The notes under the pieces are model-generated. The model was given only the letters and a program-made list of their open reading frames with translations, was not told the origin of the DNA and did not search any database. A stretch of DNA of 64,000 nt from Flavobacterium sp. N502540 (GTDB lineage Bacteria; Bacteroidota; Bacteroidia; Flavobacteriales; Flavobacteriaceae), in assembly GCF_025947365.1 (NCBI RefSeq), contig NZ_CP110012.1:3534001-3598000 (forward strand), read 5' to 3'. The position numbers and the translations under genes were made by a program. Within the stretch, counting starts at the first letter, position 1. Each line of letters begins with the position of its first letter. Positions 31,291 to 37,654 of the stretch are shown piece after piece.

Positions 31291-31659
31291 CTATAAAAAT
31301 CGTTTTATTCGCAGTAAAAGTTCATTTGGATTAAAAGGTTTAGCAATAAAATCGTCTACACCTAATTCAAAAGCTTCTTCAACAGTGTTTTCTTCTTCCC
31401 CAAGTGAAGAAAGTGCAATAACACGAATATCATTGTAATTTTGCTTGATTTCATTGATAATTTCCAGACCGGATTTAAGAGGTACGGAAATCGTGGTAAT
31501 CACTAAATCCGGCATAATAACCGGAAGCCGTTCCATGGCATTGATACCATCTTTCGCAATACTTACTTTGAAGCCTTCTTTTTTCAGAATGAATTTTAGA
31601 ATCTCAACAGTCATATCATCATTATCGATGATCATAATTTTTTTATCGGTAGTATCCAT
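31291..31659 (-). CDS. Stand-alone receiver domain lacking the phospho-acceptor Asp (122 aa)
   Basis: The CheY fold is clear: acidic pocket IIDNDDM (D12, D14/D15), beta-5 Lys in FIAKPF, and Ser in IALSSL. At the phosphorylation site, where the family has D in VILDIMMP, the sequence is VITTISVP, so Thr56 replaces Asp. The DNA codons are ACC ACG there, not near a frameshift. It has no output domain. It is the last gene of the HEAT/GT2/YaiO/DUF4838 operon, 9 bp after the DUF4838 gene, so it probably acts through protein contact without phosphorylation. Confidence 0.88.
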   Translation of the reverse strand: MDTTDKKIMIIDNDDMTVEILKFILKKEGFKVSIAKDGINAMERLPVIMPDLVITTISVPLKSGLEIINEIKQNYNDIRVIALSSLGEEENTVEEAFELGVDDFIAKPFNPNELLLRIKRFL

Positions 31660-31668
31660 TTTGACTAT

Positions 31669-33882
31669 TTATTTTTTATACAACTCTATTTCGTCCAGCA
31701 TTATCATTGCTTTTTTGTTTTTTCGCTTTCTCCAGACGGGTAATTCCTTCTGGTTTTCTGCTACGATTTTGATCTTGGTAAAACTACTGAATATTTGATT
31801 TTCGACTTCCCATGATTGTGTTGTAATTTCGTAGTCTTCTGTTAAAATGTTGCAAATTTGCTCTTTAATAAGCTCCCATTTCTGATTCTTGAAACCATAG
31901 ATTTTTATATTTTTTGGTGTAAAAATCCAATGTCTCTGATCGCTTAGGAAATTTAGTTTTAAGGTGTTGAAATCAAGATTTTTGGTTTCGATTTCAATTT
32001 CAGGATTCGTATCATACCATCCAATCCAGTTGATATTGAAGTTTTTATAGCCCCTGTTTCCATCCACTAAACCATAACTTCCTTTGCCTTTAAACTCATC
32101 AGATGGAGGTGTTAAAAAGGTAACTTTCAGATCCTCGCCTAAATGAGTAGTGGTGTTTTTGCAAATTTCAATCCATTCTTTATAGTAATTATCAGGAGAA
32201 ATTCCGTCTTCGCTCAATTCATAAACTCCAAATTGATTGCAGGATTGCGAGAATTTTAAAACTCTTTCGGTTAAGCCTGCTTTAACTTCTTTTTCGCCTT
32301 TGTTATTTACGACAAACATTCCGTGTTGGTTTTTTCCATAAAATTTGGCCTGTTCAAAATAAACAAATTCTAAAGCCAGTCGTAATTTATGAACACGTGC
32401 GCTTAAAATGGAATTATTTTCGACAGCATTATTGGCCTGTTCCAGAAAATGATCGTATTGATCCATAGCTTCAGGGGTCAAGAACGTATTTCGTGCCTGA
32501 ACAGGACCAGAATAAATATCTAAATAAGCCTTACTTTTGTTTTGATTGGCTTCTATAAGGTCAAGATATTTTGCGACAAAGGGTGCTGCTTTTCCATAAA
32601 AACCTCTGAGGAAATCAGCAGTAACAGCTTTAATGTCAATATCAGTATTCCACATTAATTTTGCCAGCAGATATTGTCGTAATTCCGAAAGATCGCCCGG
32701 AACATCAGCATATCCCTGTACAAATAGTCCTTTTACTTTGTTTTTTTGAAAGAGCTTATAGTTGCTTTGAAAAGATTCAAAATTAGGAAAGGGGGACATG
32801 AAATTAGAGAATTGTACGGTGTAATCCCATAAAAATAACTGTGGTGAAGTCGTGCTCCAGTTTTCAAGGTTTTTGACAAATGATGGGTTACTCTGATTGG
32901 TAATGGGTTTGCCACGATCCAGTTCAATCGGGCATAAGATCGTAGAAATGTTTGGAGCTATTTTTAGATTTACAGGAGGTTTGAAGGTGTGAAGATAGGC
33001 AAGGCTAGTAATTTTGGTTTTAGGGAAACGAGCCGCAATTTTATTTAAAAAATAATAAAAAGAACCTTGCGGACCGCCATATTTAGTGTTCATGGCTTTG
33101 CATTGCGTACATTCGCAATACACGACGTCATCATTCTGGCTTACAGAATAGAATTGCGCATGGGGTGTTTTTGCGATAATTTCAGTCATTTTTTCCTCTA
33201 CCAGACTCACAACGGTGTCATTGGTCATACACAAAGATTCTGTATTTCGTTCCCCTTCGTACAAAGCAAAAAGTTTAGGATTATTTTTAAAATATTCTTT
33301 TGGCGGAACAAGCATGCTAAAAGAATGTCCCCAAAGGCCAAAATCGCCAATATGCCAATCGAGTTTGTGCCAGTCCCTGAAATCTTCGTCATAACAATCA
33401 GGGTAAAACAAAGCTCTGTAATCAAAAGAGGGTTGATAAATTTTACTTGTGTTTTTGCGAAAAATAAATTGAGTTACTTTTGGAATATAAGTTTCTGTTG
33501 CAGTAAATTTTCTAAATTCCCAGATTTCGAGTAAAGTATAAACGGCATAACGCAGGTGTTTCTGATTTGGAGCCGTGATATAAATTGATTTTGAATCGCT
33601 TTTGATACTGAATTCATTTGCTTTGAGTTTTTTGTCATTGGAAATTTCCAGTATGATTTCGGAAGCATCACCCTCTTTTTGACTTTTTGTAGTAATTTCA
33701 AATGGTTTCGATACGGATTTCTCCAGATATAATTTTAGTATTCCTGCCGCAGCCTGGGTACTTTCGGCTGTAGCAAAAATTTTGGTTTTATCGGATATTG
33801 TAATTTCAGATTGTGCCATCATCTTAAAACTAAGCAGGGTGAGAATAAGTATTTGAAAATAGAGAAGGCGCTTTTTTTTCAT
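31669..33882 (-). CDS. Exported DUF4838 protein, GH67-like (737 aa)
   Basis: A signal peptide (about residues 1-23, ...FKMMAQ) is followed by a small alpha-glucuronidase-N-terminal-like domain (about 24-140). The DUF4838 catalytic-barrel-like region (about 150-400) then contains FDYRALFYPDCYDEDF, GHSFSMLVPP, VSQNDDVVYCECTQC and FVQGYADVPGDL. A C-terminal beta domain (about 600-737) looks like a carbohydrate-binding module. The family is related to GH67-type hydrolases; activity is unproven. In this operon it may trim or bind the polysaccharide in the periplasm. Confidence 0.85.
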   Translation of the reverse strand: MKKKRLLYFQILILTLLSFKMMAQSEITISDKTKIFATAESTQAAAGILKLYLEKSVSKPFEITTKSQKEGDASEIILEISNDKKLKANEFSIKSDSKSIYITAPNQKHLRYAVYTLLEIWEFRKFTATETYIPKVTQFIFRKNTSKIYQPSFDYRALFYPDCYDEDFRDWHKLDWHIGDFGLWGHSFSMLVPPKEYFKNNPKLFALYEGERNTESLCMTNDTVVSLVEEKMTEIIAKTPHAQFYSVSQNDDVVYCECTQCKAMNTKYGGPQGSFYYFLNKIAARFPKTKITSLAYLHTFKPPVNLKIAPNISTILCPIELDRGKPITNQSNPSFVKNLENWSTTSPQLFLWDYTVQFSNFMSPFPNFESFQSNYKLFQKNKVKGLFVQGYADVPGDLSELRQYLLAKLMWNTDIDIKAVTADFLRGFYGKAAPFVAKYLDLIEANQNKSKAYLDIYSGPVQARNTFLTPEAMDQYDHFLEQANNAVENNSILSARVHKLRLALEFVYFEQAKFYGKNQHGMFVVNNKGEKEVKAGLTERVLKFSQSCNQFGVYELSEDGISPDNYYKEWIEICKNTTTHLGEDLKVTFLTPPSDEFKGKGSYGLVDGNRGYKNFNINWIGWYDTNPEIEIETKNLDFNTLKLNFLSDQRHWIFTPKNIKIYGFKNQKWELIKEQICNILTEDYEITTQSWEVENQIFSSFTKIKIVAENQKELPVWRKRKNKKAMIMLDEIELYKK

Positions 33883-33887
33883 ACGAT

Positions 33888-35152
33888 TTAAAATTTATAT
33901 TGCAGTAAAAAAGCGAAATCAAGTTCGTTTTGAAACTTTTTAGGGGTGTATTCCTGTTGGTTGTTGGTGATTAATATTCCGAAAATATAATGGGTTTTGA
34001 TTAACTTGTAAAAGCCGGCACTCAGTCTGTACGAACTTAAAGAAGCTCTGTTTTCATATTCCGCCGCTCTGGTCTGATCGTCCGGCGAAGTCCCATAACC
34101 TGCAATTAGGGTAAGATAATCAAACTTAGTGCCGTAATAGTAGCGGGAGGTAAGGGTAAAGGACGGCCCGTCTTTTTGAATGTAAGATCTTAAATTGAGC
34201 CAGTATGCCCCGAAGTATTTTCCTAATCCTACATTTAAAGTTTTTAAATTGCTGTTGTCCTGCATTTCGATGTAGCGGAAGCCTAAATCTGCCTCCCAGC
34301 CTTTGGCGAAATTGTAGAAATAGGAATATCCTAATCTCCATTCAGGAAAAGCGATGTCACTGCTGTAGGCGACATCAATGTAGGAATAGTTGTTTTTCTT
34401 TCCCGACAGGTAAGATTCGACTTCAAATTGAAGTCCACTGGCCATGACCTGACTGGAAGATCGTCTTTCGGCATAGCTGACTCTTCCAATTAAACTTCCC
34501 CAGGTACGTTGATGTGTATAATCGGCACTTGCCAGATGCCACGGACCAACACCGTCGCGATCAATTGTGGTGAAGTTGTAATAAACACCCGCCCGATCCA
34601 TATTAGTTCTCGAGTACAAGGCAAAAAGACGCTGTTCGATGTCGGCGTCATTAGGATATTTTGTTCTTATCGATTGGAGGTATTTTTCTTCATTTTTAGT
34701 GTCATTCTGCAAAGAATAAATCGCAATTCTTTTCAGTCTGAAAGTTTTGTTGTCAGGAAACTGTTCAATTGCTTTATTGGTTAAGACCAGAGCTTCGTTG
34801 TAATTTTTTGCCTCTAAATCCATATTGATCAGATAGAGATAGGCATCCTCATAGGCCGGATTTTTATCAATTACATAGTTATAGTAAAAACGGGCACTGT
34901 CTTTTGTTTTTGTCAGGTCATAATTTCGCCCCAATACCAGATAGAAATCCAGGTAATCCGGAGCCAGTTTTTTCCCTAACTGAGCTCTCTGGATATTTGC
35001 TTTGTAGTCCGGACAGGCATTTTTCATGTCGTGGAGCACAACAGTCAAAAGGCTGTCAGTGTCTATTTTTTTTGACCTTTTGTAGTTTGACAGGTCAATA
35101 GAAATAAACAAAAAAGCAGTCTTATTAGAGCTATAGTTCTGTTATGTTTCAT
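33888..35152 (-). CDS. YaiO-family outer-membrane beta-barrel with TPRs; apparent frameshift
   Basis: The body (from codons around 35111 to 33888) has TPR-like helices (about 60 to 180) and a C-terminal barrel of some 220 residues ending in FLLQYKF, the YaiO layout. The long frame starts only at a TTG (35111) and has no signal peptide. In another frame an ATG at 35152, 7 nt after the GT2 stop, starts MKHNRTIALIRLLFCLFLLT, a good signal peptide. It runs to TAG at 35063-35065, directly after an A8 tract (35066-35073). One more A, or a -1 slip, would join it to the body at IDTDSLL. TPR plus barrel recalls PgaA/BcsC-type secretins. Confidence 0.82.
35066..35073 (-). other. Homopolymer A8 tract joining the two YaiO frames
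   Basis: In the coding sense the tract reads C-AAAAAAAA-TAG. Upstream of it is the signal-peptide frame; the body frame begins within it. A9, or a -1 shift at A-AAA-AAA, restores one frame. It may be phase variation, programmed slippage, a real mutation or a sequencing error. Confidence 0.7.
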
Positions 35153-35159
35153 AATCAGC

Positions 35160-36596
35160 TTATTTTTTAGATGGACCTTCATATCCTTTACGGACCATTA
35201 CGCCCCAGTTTTGTTCTTTTCTTCGAAAGAAGAGCCAATAGCCTTTCAGTGAGGCATAAATCGTTATCGGATGATACGCAAAAGGCTCAAGTGCGGCCAT
35301 CCCGATAAGAATCATTAATTCTTTATAATTGGCATAACTTTTATACAGTATTTCATCTATCAATATGGATATTATGGTTATGGAGAGATAGAATAGATAG
35401 ACTAATAGGCTTATAATCAGTAAATGTTGGTAGTCGATCATTCCAAATATAAAACTGAAAATGAGAGTCAGAATACCAATAAATTCAATAATAGGAACTA
35501 AAAACTCAAAACTGAAAAAGAAAGGTAATACCAGAAATGCTGTTCGTCCGTATTTTGGATTTAAAAACATTTTTCGATGTAAATATAAGGTTTGAACTAG
35601 TCCACGAGCCCAGCGAATGCGCTGTCTTAAGAATATTTTTCGCGTACTTGGAACTTCGGTCCAGCAGAGCGATTCGGGAATGTATTTGATTAAGTATTTT
35701 TCTTTAGTATCGTGCATGTATTTTCGCATGCGCGTCACCAGTTCCATATCTTCGCCTAAGGACTGATGCCAGTATCCACCCGCTTTAATTACAATGTCTT
35801 TATCAAACATACCGAGACCTCCGGAAACCAAAAGCAGACCGTTTAGCTGACTCCACGCCATTCTTCCAAATAAAAAAGAACGCACGTATTCTAATTCCTG
35901 AAAACGCGGATACCATTCTTTAGGATAGTGAACTTTAAACAAAAAGCCTTCCTTGATTTCGCAGGAATTTGAAATCCTGATTCCGGCTCCGCAGGCAATG
36001 ACACGGGTTTCATTTTCCATAAACGGTTTGGCCAGTTTCAAAATAGTATCTCTTTTTAGAATACAATCTACATCAGTGCATAAAAACAGGGGATATTGCG
36101 AAGAGTTTATCCCGGCATTTGCGGCATCAGCTTTACTTTTTCCATTTATTTTGTCGACAATCAGTAATTTCGAATAAACAGGATTCTTTGATTTATAATG
36201 TCCGCGAACGGGTTGTGTGACTATTTTCTCCTGATAATAAAAGTCAATTTTAACCAGATCAAATTCGGCAATTAGTTTTTCCAGCGTATCGTCAGAACTT
36301 CCGTCATTGACAATAATGATTTCGTATTTCGGATAGGTCAGAGAGAGCAGGGATTTAACATTGTAGACGATATTTACGCCCTCATTAAAAGCAGGAGCCA
36401 CAATGGAAACGCCCAGTATATGGTTCGAACGAATTAGAACCTCTTCTTCCAGGTATTTTTGATATTTTAAATGTTTTACGATCGCCCAATAAGAAAGAAC
36501 AGACAGAAAGATGTAGAACAGAATGTACCCGATTGAAAAATGGATTACAAAGACATTGTAACAGTGAATAATATAATGTAGAAAATCAGTCGTCAT
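35160..36596 (-). CDS. Processive glycosyltransferase family 2, PgaC/BcsA-like (478 aa)
   Basis: An N-terminal helix (about residues 15-42) precedes a GT2 domain with APAFNEGVNI, the DGSSDD donor site, DVDC (D-x-D), GGLGMFDKD, the base region LGEDMEL and RQRIRWARG (the Q-x-x-R-W motif of processive synthases). Three to four C-terminal helices (about 350-440) form the translocation channel. This architecture is that of inner-membrane synthases that both polymerise and extrude a beta-linked glycan. No PilZ domain is attached. Its ATG overlaps the HEAT gene stop (ATGA). YaiO starts 7 nt after its stop. Confidence 0.93.
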   Translation of the reverse strand: MTTDFLHYIIHCYNVFVIHFSIGYILFYIFLSVLSYWAIVKHLKYQKYLEEEVLIRSNHILGVSIVAPAFNEGVNIVYNVKSLLSLTYPKYEIIIVNDGSSDDTLEKLIAEFDLVKIDFYYQEKIVTQPVRGHYKSKNPVYSKLLIVDKINGKSKADAANAGINSSQYPLFLCTDVDCILKRDTILKLAKPFMENETRVIACGAGIRISNSCEIKEGFLFKVHYPKEWYPRFQELEYVRSFLFGRMAWSQLNGLLLVSGGLGMFDKDIVIKAGGYWHQSLGEDMELVTRMRKYMHDTKEKYLIKYIPESLCWTEVPSTRKIFLRQRIRWARGLVQTLYLHRKMFLNPKYGRTAFLVLPFFFSFEFLVPIIEFIGILTLIFSFIFGMIDYQHLLIISLLVYLFYLSITIISILIDEILYKSYANYKELMILIGMAALEPFAYHPITIYASLKGYWLFFRRKEQNWGVMVRKGYEGPSKK

Positions 36597-37654
36597 AGTT
36601 GTAATTCTCTAATGTGATTAATCATTTTTTGGGTATCGGAATCCTGTCTTCCTAATACATCTGTACGTAGAGAATCGAGATCGTTTAAAGCGGCTACCAT
36701 TTTTAATTTAAGATCTTTGATTTCTTCGTTTGGAATTTGATGGTTTAAAAATGAAATTGTTTTTTCTGAGCCTATAATGGCGAGGGCATCCAGAATTTCC
36801 AGTTGAAGTTCGATACTCTCCTGCTTAAATTGCAGTAACAGATCCTCTTCGGCTTCATACAGGTACAAGTCGCGAATGGCAATAATCACATCGGTTCTTA
36901 GATTTTTATTTTCGTGTTTGAGCAATTTGATAATATCCCCTGATCTGTTCCTGTAATTATAAAATACCATAGTCATCACGGCTAATTTCAGAATAGTAGG
37001 ATTATCAGATTCTATCCAGAGCTCAATATCGGGTGGAATTGGTATGTTTTGCGAATGCAACACATCCATTATTTTTATAGTAGTACTGATGGATACTTTT
37101 ACCGGAATCTTATTAACGGCCTGCCAGTCTCCTTTGGTTAAAATCAGGTAAGCAATATTGGCATTTGACCGGATAATTTTATTGGGATGGAACAAATATT
37201 TTTTGATTAAAGTAATTCCCGGTTTGTATCCCAAGGCTTGAAAATGATAAATGCCATCACATTTTTTATATTTTCTAAAATCCCGAAGCAAACTTGCCGA
37301 ATAATGGTTTAAACCCAGTTGGTTGTATATAATAAGAATGTTTTTGGCGGTTTTACCTTTTAAATTGCTTTTCATCCGAATCATATCGTCGATAAGCATT
37401 TCTTTACACCAGGTTTTATGGATTGGAATTTCGGATCTGAATTTGGCGATTTTGTATTTCAGAATACTTTCCTCCGGTTTTGAGAGTGTAATCTCTGTAA
37501 GGAAAATTTCAGATTTTCTAATAATATGATGCCGGTAAGGAAGAGTGTATTGATAATGAATTCTTTTGAGTATTAAAGCAAGTGCTAAAGCTAAACTTGT
37601 AAATACAAATAATGGGATGGCGTAGTGTTTTATATAACCTATAAAATGCTCCAT
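36593..37654 (-). CDS. Membrane-anchored HEAT-repeat protein (353 aa)
   Basis: One N-terminal helix (about residues 10-30, ...LFVFTSLALALALILK) is followed by a long helical domain. HEAT-like units are visible near residues 225-330 (IIKLLKHENKNLRTDVIIAI, then a unit with LEILDALAIIGSEKTISFL). The frame is open to a GTG at 37693, but the ATG at 37654 gives the natural N-terminus. It is the first gene of the operon and its stop overlaps the GT2 start by 4 bases (ATGA). It may be a scaffold or co-polymerase for the synthase; that is inference. Confidence 0.85.
   Translation of the reverse strand: MEHFIGYIKHYAIPLFVFTSLALALALILKRIHYQYTLPYRHHIIRKSEIFLTEITLSKPEESILKYKIAKFRSEIPIHKTWCKEMLIDDMIRMKSNLKGKTAKNILIIYNQLGLNHYSASLLRDFRKYKKCDGIYHFQALGYKPGITLIKKYLFHPNKIIRSNANIAYLILTKGDWQAVNKIPVKVSISTTIKIMDVLHSQNIPIPPDIELWIESDNPTILKLAVMTMVFYNYRNRSGDIIKLLKHENKNLRTDVIIAIRDLYLYEAEEDLLLQFKQESIELQLEILDALAIIGSEKTISFLNHQIPNEEIKDLKLKMVAALNDLDSLRTDVLGRQDSDTQKMINHIRELQL

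What the first reader, a model, noticed from the sequence alone, without database searches (positions are those of the whole stretch)
31291..37654. Five-gene operon with the parts of an unassigned synthase-dependent polysaccharide system
Seen: a HEAT protein with one membrane anchor, a processive-type GT2 (DxD, ED, QxxRW), a TPR plus beta-barrel protein (YaiO type), an exported DUF4838 protein and a stand-alone receiver lie on one strand, with gaps of -4, 7, 5 and 9 nt. Known: Pga, Bcs and Alg systems pair an inner-membrane GT2 with a TPR/beta-barrel porin and a periplasmic hydrolase. Here there is no PilZ, no deacetylase and no Pga/Bcs/Alg/Pel partner; HEAT, DUF4838 and a pseudo-receiver take those places. 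Inference: an exopolysaccharide or surface-glycan machine with phosphorylation-independent control.
Basis: partly seen in the sequence, partly recalled or inferred. Interest (0 to 1): 0.75.

Follow-up and report, generated by a model that had tools for sequence, protein, structure and literature searches.

The report
Receiver-HEAT-controlled polysaccharide synthase operon
A Flavobacterium-type operon encodes a probable cell-surface polysaccharide synthase that comes with a HEAT-repeat membrane partner and usually a CheY-like receiver, in bacteria that mostly lack the messenger (c-di-GMP) known to switch such synthases on.

Summary
The five genes are there (HEAT, processive GT2, TPR/YaiO barrel, exported DUF4838 glycosidase-like protein, stand-alone receiver; minus strand, gaps -4, 7, 5, 9). 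One correction: YaiO is not a single open frame here; its signal peptide and barrel part at an A8 run, while a near-identical genome has it intact. The order is kept in the 20 best-matching in-genus loci fetched. A wider survey redraws the system: the core is receiver-HEAT-GT2, usually with YaiO. HEAT is directly upstream of this GT2 in 61 of 61 Flavobacteriaceae loci and 74 of 80 named loci from many phyla, against 0 of 20 controls, and the two are naturally fused in spirochaetes. DUF4838 is optional; 40 of 61 loci carry an LtaS-type phosphotransferase, 38 a hybrid kinase. Of 58 Flavobacteriaceae genomes with the GT2, one has a GGDEF domain over cut-off and none a PilZ, so c-di-GMP control is very unlikely there. 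Best explanation: a synthase-dependent surface polysaccharide machine gated from the cytoplasm by a receiver acting through HEAT. Product, contacts and sign of control are untested. No paper found describes the module.

The parts
36593..37654 (-). HEAT-repeat protein with one N-terminal membrane anchor, HEAT domain predicted cytoplasmic; constant neighbour of the GT2
   Evidence: HEAT_2 21.9 bits, sub-threshold; over 61 Flavobacteriaceae HEAT proteins: anchor in 59, more K/R after than before it in 61; profile match to the HEAT part of natural fusions
35160..36596 (-). Processive-type GT2 polysaccharide synthase (478 aa)
   Evidence: (nearest NCBIfam PgaC_IcaA 113 bits, cut-off 422.3); the model of a relative (HEAT::GT2 fusion) matches hyaluronan synthase and BcsA
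36066..36074 (-). DxD motif (D175-x-D177) of the GT2
   Evidence: invariant in 24 members
35748..35753 (-). ED motif (E282-D283), catalytic base region (role recalled)
   Evidence: invariant in 24 members
35610..35624 (-). QxxRW motif (Q325 to W329)
   Evidence: Q, R and W invariant in 24 members
33888..35152 (-). TPR plus YaiO-type outer-membrane barrel gene; not one open frame in this strain
   Evidence: intact in L173
35066..35073 (-). A8 run in which the signal-peptide frame (from 35152, stop at 35065-35063) and the TPR/barrel frame part
31669..33882 (-). Exported DUF4838 protein: GH20b-type N-domain, glycosidase-like barrel, C-terminal sugar-binding-like domain; predicted periplasmic glycosidase
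31291..31659 (-). Stand-alone receiver (CheY-like), degenerate: no phospho-acceptor Asp
   Evidence: dN/dS median 0.069 over 19 comparisons
31492..31494 (-). Codon 56 of the receiver, Thr in place of the phospho-acceptor Asp

Best explanation
The operon encodes a synthase-dependent surface polysaccharide machine whose switch is a receiver-HEAT pair instead of c-di-GMP. The GT2 polymerises a nucleotide sugar (most likely a HexNAc, inferred) on the cytoplasmic side and pushes the chain through its own membrane channel. The HEAT protein is a constant inner-membrane subunit: its anchor packs on the synthase and its cytoplasmic solenoid lies by the catalytic domain and carries the signal. In the usual form a hybrid histidine kinase phosphorylates the stand-alone receiver, which binds HEAT or GT2 and gates synthesis after translation. 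The TPR/YaiO barrel carries the chain over the outer membrane. An LtaS-type phosphotransferase (most Flavobacteriaceae loci seen) or the DUF4838 glycosidase (window type) modifies or trims it in the periplasm. In the window's clade the receiver lost its acceptor Asp but stays under selection, so there it probably acts as a constitutive or partner-regulated subunit. Shown here: gene content, order, fusions, conservation, motifs, no GGDEF or PilZ found in the genome. Inferred: the polymer, the receiver contact and its sign, export through YaiO, trimming by DUF4838.
Against: No product is known for any member found. Receiver-HEAT or receiver-GT2 contact is not shown. No receiver over threshold on the same strand in 4 of 61 and 19 of 80 loci (several of the 19 are cut by contig ends, and L127 and L143 have one just under threshold). 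YaiO is missing from L193, L194, L205 and not on the same strand in 6 of 61 loci, so it is not obligate, and it is broken in the window. The LtaS-type enzyme keeps its Asp in only 21 of 37. GGDEF and PilZ searches are by domain profile and would miss unusual c-di-GMP proteins; two relatives outside the family have a GGDEF next to the receiver (L150, L166). A confident fusion model does not prove the same contact in split proteins.
Confidence: 0.6

Rival explanations
1. The GT2 is a non-processive enzyme that builds a lipid-linked sugar or decorates lipopolysaccharide; YaiO, DUF4838 and the receiver are unrelated fellow travellers.
Against: QxxRW and ED invariant; about 390 residues of hyaluronan synthase with its membrane part are matched; YaiO in 55 of 61 and 50 of 80 loci against 0 of 20 controls.
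Confidence: 0.18
2. The receiver is only one step of a phosphorelay to other outputs (for example transcription) and does not touch the synthase; HEAT is a structural partner of the GT2.
For: Hybrid kinases with their own receivers lie next to it; stand-alone receivers often serve as relay steps (recalled); no contact was shown; I did not search the loci for output regulators or Hpt genes beyond the ten proteins.
Against: The receiver stays with HEAT-GT2 across phyla; the window clade keeps it under selection with no acceptor Asp, which a relay step could hardly tolerate.
Confidence: 0.25
3. The window locus is decaying: the receiver has lost its active site and YaiO is broken.
For: Asp replaced by Thr; YaiO frames part at an A8 run.
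Against: Thr or Asn in 20 loci of a clade that keeps all five genes; dN/dS medians 0.037 to 0.092; YaiO intact in L173.
Confidence: 0.07
4. It is a diverged poly-GlcNAc (Pga/Ica) system with renamed parts.
For: PgaC_IcaA is the best NCBIfam model for the GT2 (113 bits); TPR-plus-barrel layout as in PgaA (recalled); DUF4838 matches hexosaminidases.
Against: Far under the PgaC cut-off of 422.3; no PgaA, PgaB or PgaD model among the matches of the five proteins, no deacetylase; no GGDEF or PilZ found in the genome.
Confidence: 0.15

Closest known systems
Pga/Ica poly-N-acetylglucosamine systems (PgaABCD, IcaADBC; their make-up recalled)
   Same: Membrane GT2 (PgaC is the nearest curated model), TPR plus outer-membrane barrel, periplasmic glycosidase-like protein
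   Different: HEAT protein and receiver instead of PgaD and c-di-GMP, no deacetylase among the five genes, barrel matches YaiO and not the PgaA model, GT2 far under the PgaC cut-off
Bacterial cellulose synthase (Bcs), including the pEtN-cellulose type with BcsG (make-up recalled)
   Same: Processive GT2 with a membrane part that matches BcsA; a sulfatase-fold transferase beside or fused to the synthase in relatives
   Different: No PilZ on the GT2, no BcsB or BcsC among the five genes, no GGDEF or PilZ found in the genome
EpsW-EpsZ regulation in Myxococcus xanthus (PMC12802240; abstract and passages read)
   Same: A stand-alone receiver tied to a polysaccharide-making membrane enzyme, post-translational control
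   Different: Target there is a phosphoglycosyl transferase of a Wzx/Wzy pathway, not a processive synthase; no HEAT partner is named in the passages seen
E. coli yaiO-yaiX-yaiP-yaiS
   Same: YaiO barrel encoded near a GT2
   Different: YaiP shares only the N-terminal stretch (35 bits); no HEAT or receiver gene annotated in 376000-386000; yaiX interrupted by IS2
DUF4838 proteins (PF16126) and BT0459, GH84, GH115, GH20 glycosidases
   Same: Fold and domain order
   Different: 9 to 16% identity in the 50 VIA rows shown; one paper names DUF4838 (listing only)

Membership tests
Synthase-dependent polysaccharide systems (general kind) | Membrane-embedded processive GT2 with DxD, ED and QxxRW | tested here: met
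   (fold tested on a relative)
Synthase-dependent polysaccharide systems (general kind) | TPR plus outer-membrane barrel encoded with the synthase | tested here: met
   frame broken in the window strain
Synthase-dependent polysaccharide systems (general kind) | Polymer product dependent on the GT2 | not testable with these tools
   needs mutants and glycan analysis
Pga/Ica (PNAG) | GT2 over the PgaC_IcaA cut-off | tested here: not met
   113 bits against 422.3
Pga/Ica (PNAG) | PgaA-type porin (TIGR03939) | tested here: not met
   not among the two matches of the window YaiO at E 0.01
Pga/Ica (PNAG) | PgaB/IcaB deacetylase in the operon | tested here: not met
   none among the five genes
Bcs (cellulose) | PilZ domain on the GT2 | tested here: not met
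c-di-GMP-controlled synthases | GGDEF and PilZ domains in the genome | tested here: not met
   family survey
YaiO outer-membrane barrel family | PF19413 / TIGR04390 over cut-off | tested here: met
   150.2 bits against 23.9; 99.8 against 32
Phosphorylatable receiver | Receiver domain, acid pair, Ser/Thr and Lys | tested here: met
Phosphorylatable receiver | Phospho-acceptor Asp | tested here: not met
   Thr in the window, Thr or Asn in 19 relatives; Asp in 112 of 115 surveyed receivers
HEAT-repeat proteins | Pfam HEAT_2 over cut-off | tested here: inconclusive
   21.9 against 27.7 bits; profile match to HEAT part of fusions E 3e-9
DUF4838 | PF16126 over cut-off | tested here: met
   303.4 bits against 26.6
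Glycoside hydrolases of the GH20/84/115 fold group | Same fold and domain order | tested here: met
Glycoside hydrolases of the GH20/84/115 fold group | Catalytic acids and activity | tested here: inconclusive
   D251 invariant in 26 sequences; activity not testable
EpsW-EpsZ type control | Phosphoglycosyl transferase as the receiver's target | tested here: not met
   no such enzyme among the five genes

The most novel reading that the evidence does not exclude
Receiver-HEAT-GT2 is a second general way to switch polysaccharide synthases, parallel to c-di-GMP and found from Bacteroidota to Bacillota and perhaps archaea: a two-component system drives polymer synthesis directly through a HEAT subunit that is built into the synthase, and in one Flavobacterium clade the receiver has turned into a phosphorylation-free structural regulator.
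Probability: 0.5. Interest if true: 0.86.

Novelty: new variant of a known kind. Interest (0 to 1): 0.72.

Why it matters
Known synthase-dependent systems are frequently gated by c-di-GMP (PMC12802240, passage), yet nearly all of the 199 Flavobacteriaceae genomes surveyed lack GGDEF and PilZ domains and must control such polymers in another way. A receiver-HEAT-GT2 core with natural fusions gives a concrete, testable candidate for that way. If right, it links two-component signalling to polymer output without a transcription step, over many phyla, and offers a natural series (Asp, Glu, Thr, Asn, Ser, Ala at the acceptor site) for studying how a receiver evolves from switch to fixed subunit.

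Tried and rejected
Pga/Ica membership: rejected on cut-offs and missing parts. E. coli YaiP as a relative: only the N-terminal stretch aligns. Romboutsia RiGT2 (PMC10374906, abstract and passages) was considered because a Romboutsia protein is among the fusion hits (P0099); RiGT2 has a C-terminal PilZ domain, so it was set aside. P0071 (receiver, HEAT-like part and GT2 in one chain) was not used as evidence: the stretch after its receiver looks out of frame. A mixed alignment of split HEAT and GT2 proteins with the fusion (A3) placed HEAT rows on the GT2 half and was dropped; the fusion was modelled on 54 fusion proteins, itself included (A4). Model faults found on checking: the first phosphotransferase model held one contaminant (a metal-ATPase-like ORF of L046) and the first GT2 model held one GT2-sulfatase fusion, so it also scored sulfatase proteins; both were used. 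With clean models the counts were the same except LtaS-type 40 instead of 41 of 61 and HEAT directly upstream 74 instead of 73 of 80; I quote. Rows left out: G630 (GT2 82% over residues 2-360 only) was not fetched; of the in-genus matches at 60-78% I fetched 20. Literature searches gave no paper on this module (listings; passages seen of PMC12802240, PMC10374906 and PMC12419801 only, the last irrelevant); subscription papers and preprints are not in that library. The structure comparison of the fusion covers its GT2 half only and says nothing on the solenoid. No complex could be modelled, so receiver contact is untested. Promoter and terminator scans were not run.
Full report
WHAT IS THERE. 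Pfam and NCBIfam name the parts; HEAT_2 is under its cut-off in the window protein (21.9 against 27.7 bits), but the family's profile matches the HEAT part of natural fusions at 96.1% and E 3e-9. The operon lies between a DEAD-box-helicase-like gene downstream and a gene of unknown role upstream (the helicase name is recalled from the sequence).

A BREAK THAT WAS MISSED. The YaiO start at 35152 opens a 29-residue signal-peptide-like frame that stops at 35063. The TPR/barrel frame is open from 35141. They part in an A8 run at 35066-35073. Another genome whose GT2 matches at 100% (G433, L173) has one intact 431-residue YaiO. The break is therefore special to this strain or assembly.

ORDER IN RELATIVES. 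I fetched the 20 in-genus loci that follow the window's own (GT2 81-100%, L173-L192); the order HEAT-GT2-YaiO-DUF4838-receiver is kept in all 20, with same-sized neighbours on both sides in most. G630, with a partial GT2, was not fetched. Twenty further in-genus loci (GT2 60-78%, L193-L212, a part of those found) vary: DUF4838 is absent in L203, L204, L207, L208, L211 and L212; YaiO is cleanly absent from L193, L194 and L205; in L035, L209 and L210 the GT2 is fused to a sulfatase-fold enzyme. dN/dS medians over 19 comparisons with L173 (one of them, L192, has the Asp) are 0.069 (receiver), 0.092 (DUF4838), 0.037 (GT2), 0.081 (HEAT) and 0.076 (YaiO); the synonymous distance was saturated in 0, 1, 10, 4 and 16 of the 19, so the figures for GT2 and YaiO rest on fewer pairs.

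THE WIDER SYSTEM. In a draw of 199 Flavobacteriaceae genomes (about one a genus), 58 carry this GT2 subfamily at over 360 bits, or in two halves (G041), with a clear gap to other GT2s under 66 bits (my count from its rows). Around the 61 loci of these genomes HEAT is on the same strand within 7 kb in 61, a receiver in 57, YaiO in 55, the LtaS-type enzyme in 40, a hybrid kinase in 38, DUF4838 in 6, and HEAT is the gene directly upstream of GT2 in 61. The usual order is kinase, receiver, HEAT, GT2, LtaS-type enzyme, YaiO. The LtaS-type protein has a sulfatase domain (89-123 bits in four full-length proteins), membrane helices and a TPR end. The window's own genome has a second locus in the kinase, receiver, YaiO, HEAT, GT2 form, with the receiver's Asp in place (L033). 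Twenty control loci around other GT2s, drawn from the weak hits, show HEAT 0, YaiO 0, LtaS-type 0, DUF4838 0, same-strand receiver 2, kinase 2.

OUTSIDE THE FAMILY. Among these HEAT is on the same strand within 7 kb in 76, directly upstream in 74, receiver in 61, YaiO in 50, LtaS-type in 20, DUF4838 in 13, kinase in 22. Of the four without HEAT, L113, L133 and L135 have the GT2 within 450 bases of a contig end. Titles cover Bacteroidota, Alpha-, Gamma- and Deltaproteobacteria, Bdellovibrio, Myxococcota, Gemmatimonadetes, Terriglobia, Elusimicrobia, Spirochaetales, Neomarinimicrobiota, Bacillota and Halorubrum; some are metagenome bins and may be misnamed, and the Halorubrum HEAT rests on the rebuilt model only. 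In Paenibacillus (L166) and a myxococcote (L150) the receiver sits in larger proteins with a GGDEF domain. In a phylum draw 94 of 395 genomes have the GT2 at E 1e-60; in a genus draw 170 of 398 have it at 1e-100.

HEAT IS PART OF THE SYNTHASE. A spirochaete has HEAT and GT2 in one chain (L163; HEAT_2 27.8 against 27.7 bits, GT2 68.6 bits). A search with its GT2 half listed 120 of 1710 proteins, of which 82 carry PF13646 beside the GT2 domains (my count). The AlphaFold2 model of this fusion has pLDDT 89.2 and pTM 0.88. Its GT2 half matches hyaluronan synthases, BcsA and chitin synthase, and also the mannosyltransferase PcManGT, the top VIA row. In six BcsA rows (9fnn, 9fmz, 5ej1, 9fp0, 9fmv, 4p00) the aligned range begins at model residue 1 to 4, which is the HEAT anchor helix, as if it stood in for a BcsA membrane helix; in a seventh (9b8v) it begins at 469. 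A range is not a full alignment, so this is only suggestive. In 61 HEAT proteins of Flavobacteriaceae the anchor is clear in 59 and more basic residues lie on its C-side in 61 (mean 5.7 against 0.8), so the repeats should face the cytoplasm.

THE RECEIVER. Of 115 receivers under 200 residues near the GT2, 112 keep the acceptor Asp, two have Glu, and the window has Thr. In the 20 loci of the window's clade (window and L173-L191) the residue is Thr or Asn; L198 and L199 have Ser and Ala; the other receivers listed there have Asp. On the GT2 tree this is two changes.

NO C-DI-GMP FOUND. The own one-contig genome has no GGDEF and no PilZ match (the models ring in 8 and 5 of 14 control genomes). 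In the same 199-genome draw GGDEF is matched in 4 genomes (2 over cut-off) and PilZ in 1. Of the 58 genomes with the GT2, one (G093) has a GGDEF over cut-off, a second (G104) one under cut-off, and none has PilZ.

HOW IT PROBABLY WORKS. The synthase polymerises and extrudes; HEAT relays a cytoplasmic signal; the receiver supplies it; YaiO exports; the phosphotransferase or DUF4838 tailors. The nearest proven control of this style that I found is EpsW acting on EpsZ; the same paper says that synthase-dependent pathways are frequently controlled by c-di-GMP (PMC12802240). Product, contacts and the sign of control remain untested.

NOVELTY. The kind (synthase-dependent polysaccharide system) is known; the receiver-HEAT control core was not found in nine searches of an open-access library. 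I therefore rate it a new variant of a known kind.

Noticed in passing
L033 (own genome C1:4792000-4807000): Second locus in the same genome: hybrid kinase, receiver with Asp, YaiO, HEAT, GT2; no LtaS-type enzyme or DUF4838 seen beside it.
   Followed up: partly
window 35066-35073: A8 run where the YaiO signal-peptide and barrel frames part; intact in L173. Possible phase-variable tract or assembly error.
   Followed up: partly
L193, L194, L205: YaiO cleanly absent from otherwise complete operons; DUF4838 and receiver kept.
   Followed up: partly
L035, L209, L210, L110, L112, L115, L119, L120: GT2 and LtaS-type sulfatase-fold enzyme in one chain of 1139 to 1267 residues.
   Followed up: partly
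L097, L098, L099, L100, L142: Two tandem GT2 genes after HEAT in Chitinophagaceae-like contigs, followed by a TPR/YaiO protein (large except in L100, which is cut by the contig end) and, except in L100, DUF4838.
   Followed up: no
L150, L166: Upstream regulators hold receivers and a GGDEF domain, so these lineages may mix receiver and c-di-GMP inputs on the same HEAT-GT2 core.
   Followed up: no
L171 (Halorubrum lipolyticum): GT2 of this subfamily in an archaeon with a HEAT-like gene (rebuilt model only) and a receiver gene on the same strand nearby.
   Followed up: no
L047:8029-10458: LtaS-type enzyme, over 37 aligned: metal-ligand Glu/Asp in 37, Ser/Thr at the nucleophile position in 32, His in 33, but Asp only in 21; some may be inactive (residue roles recalled).
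   Followed up: partly
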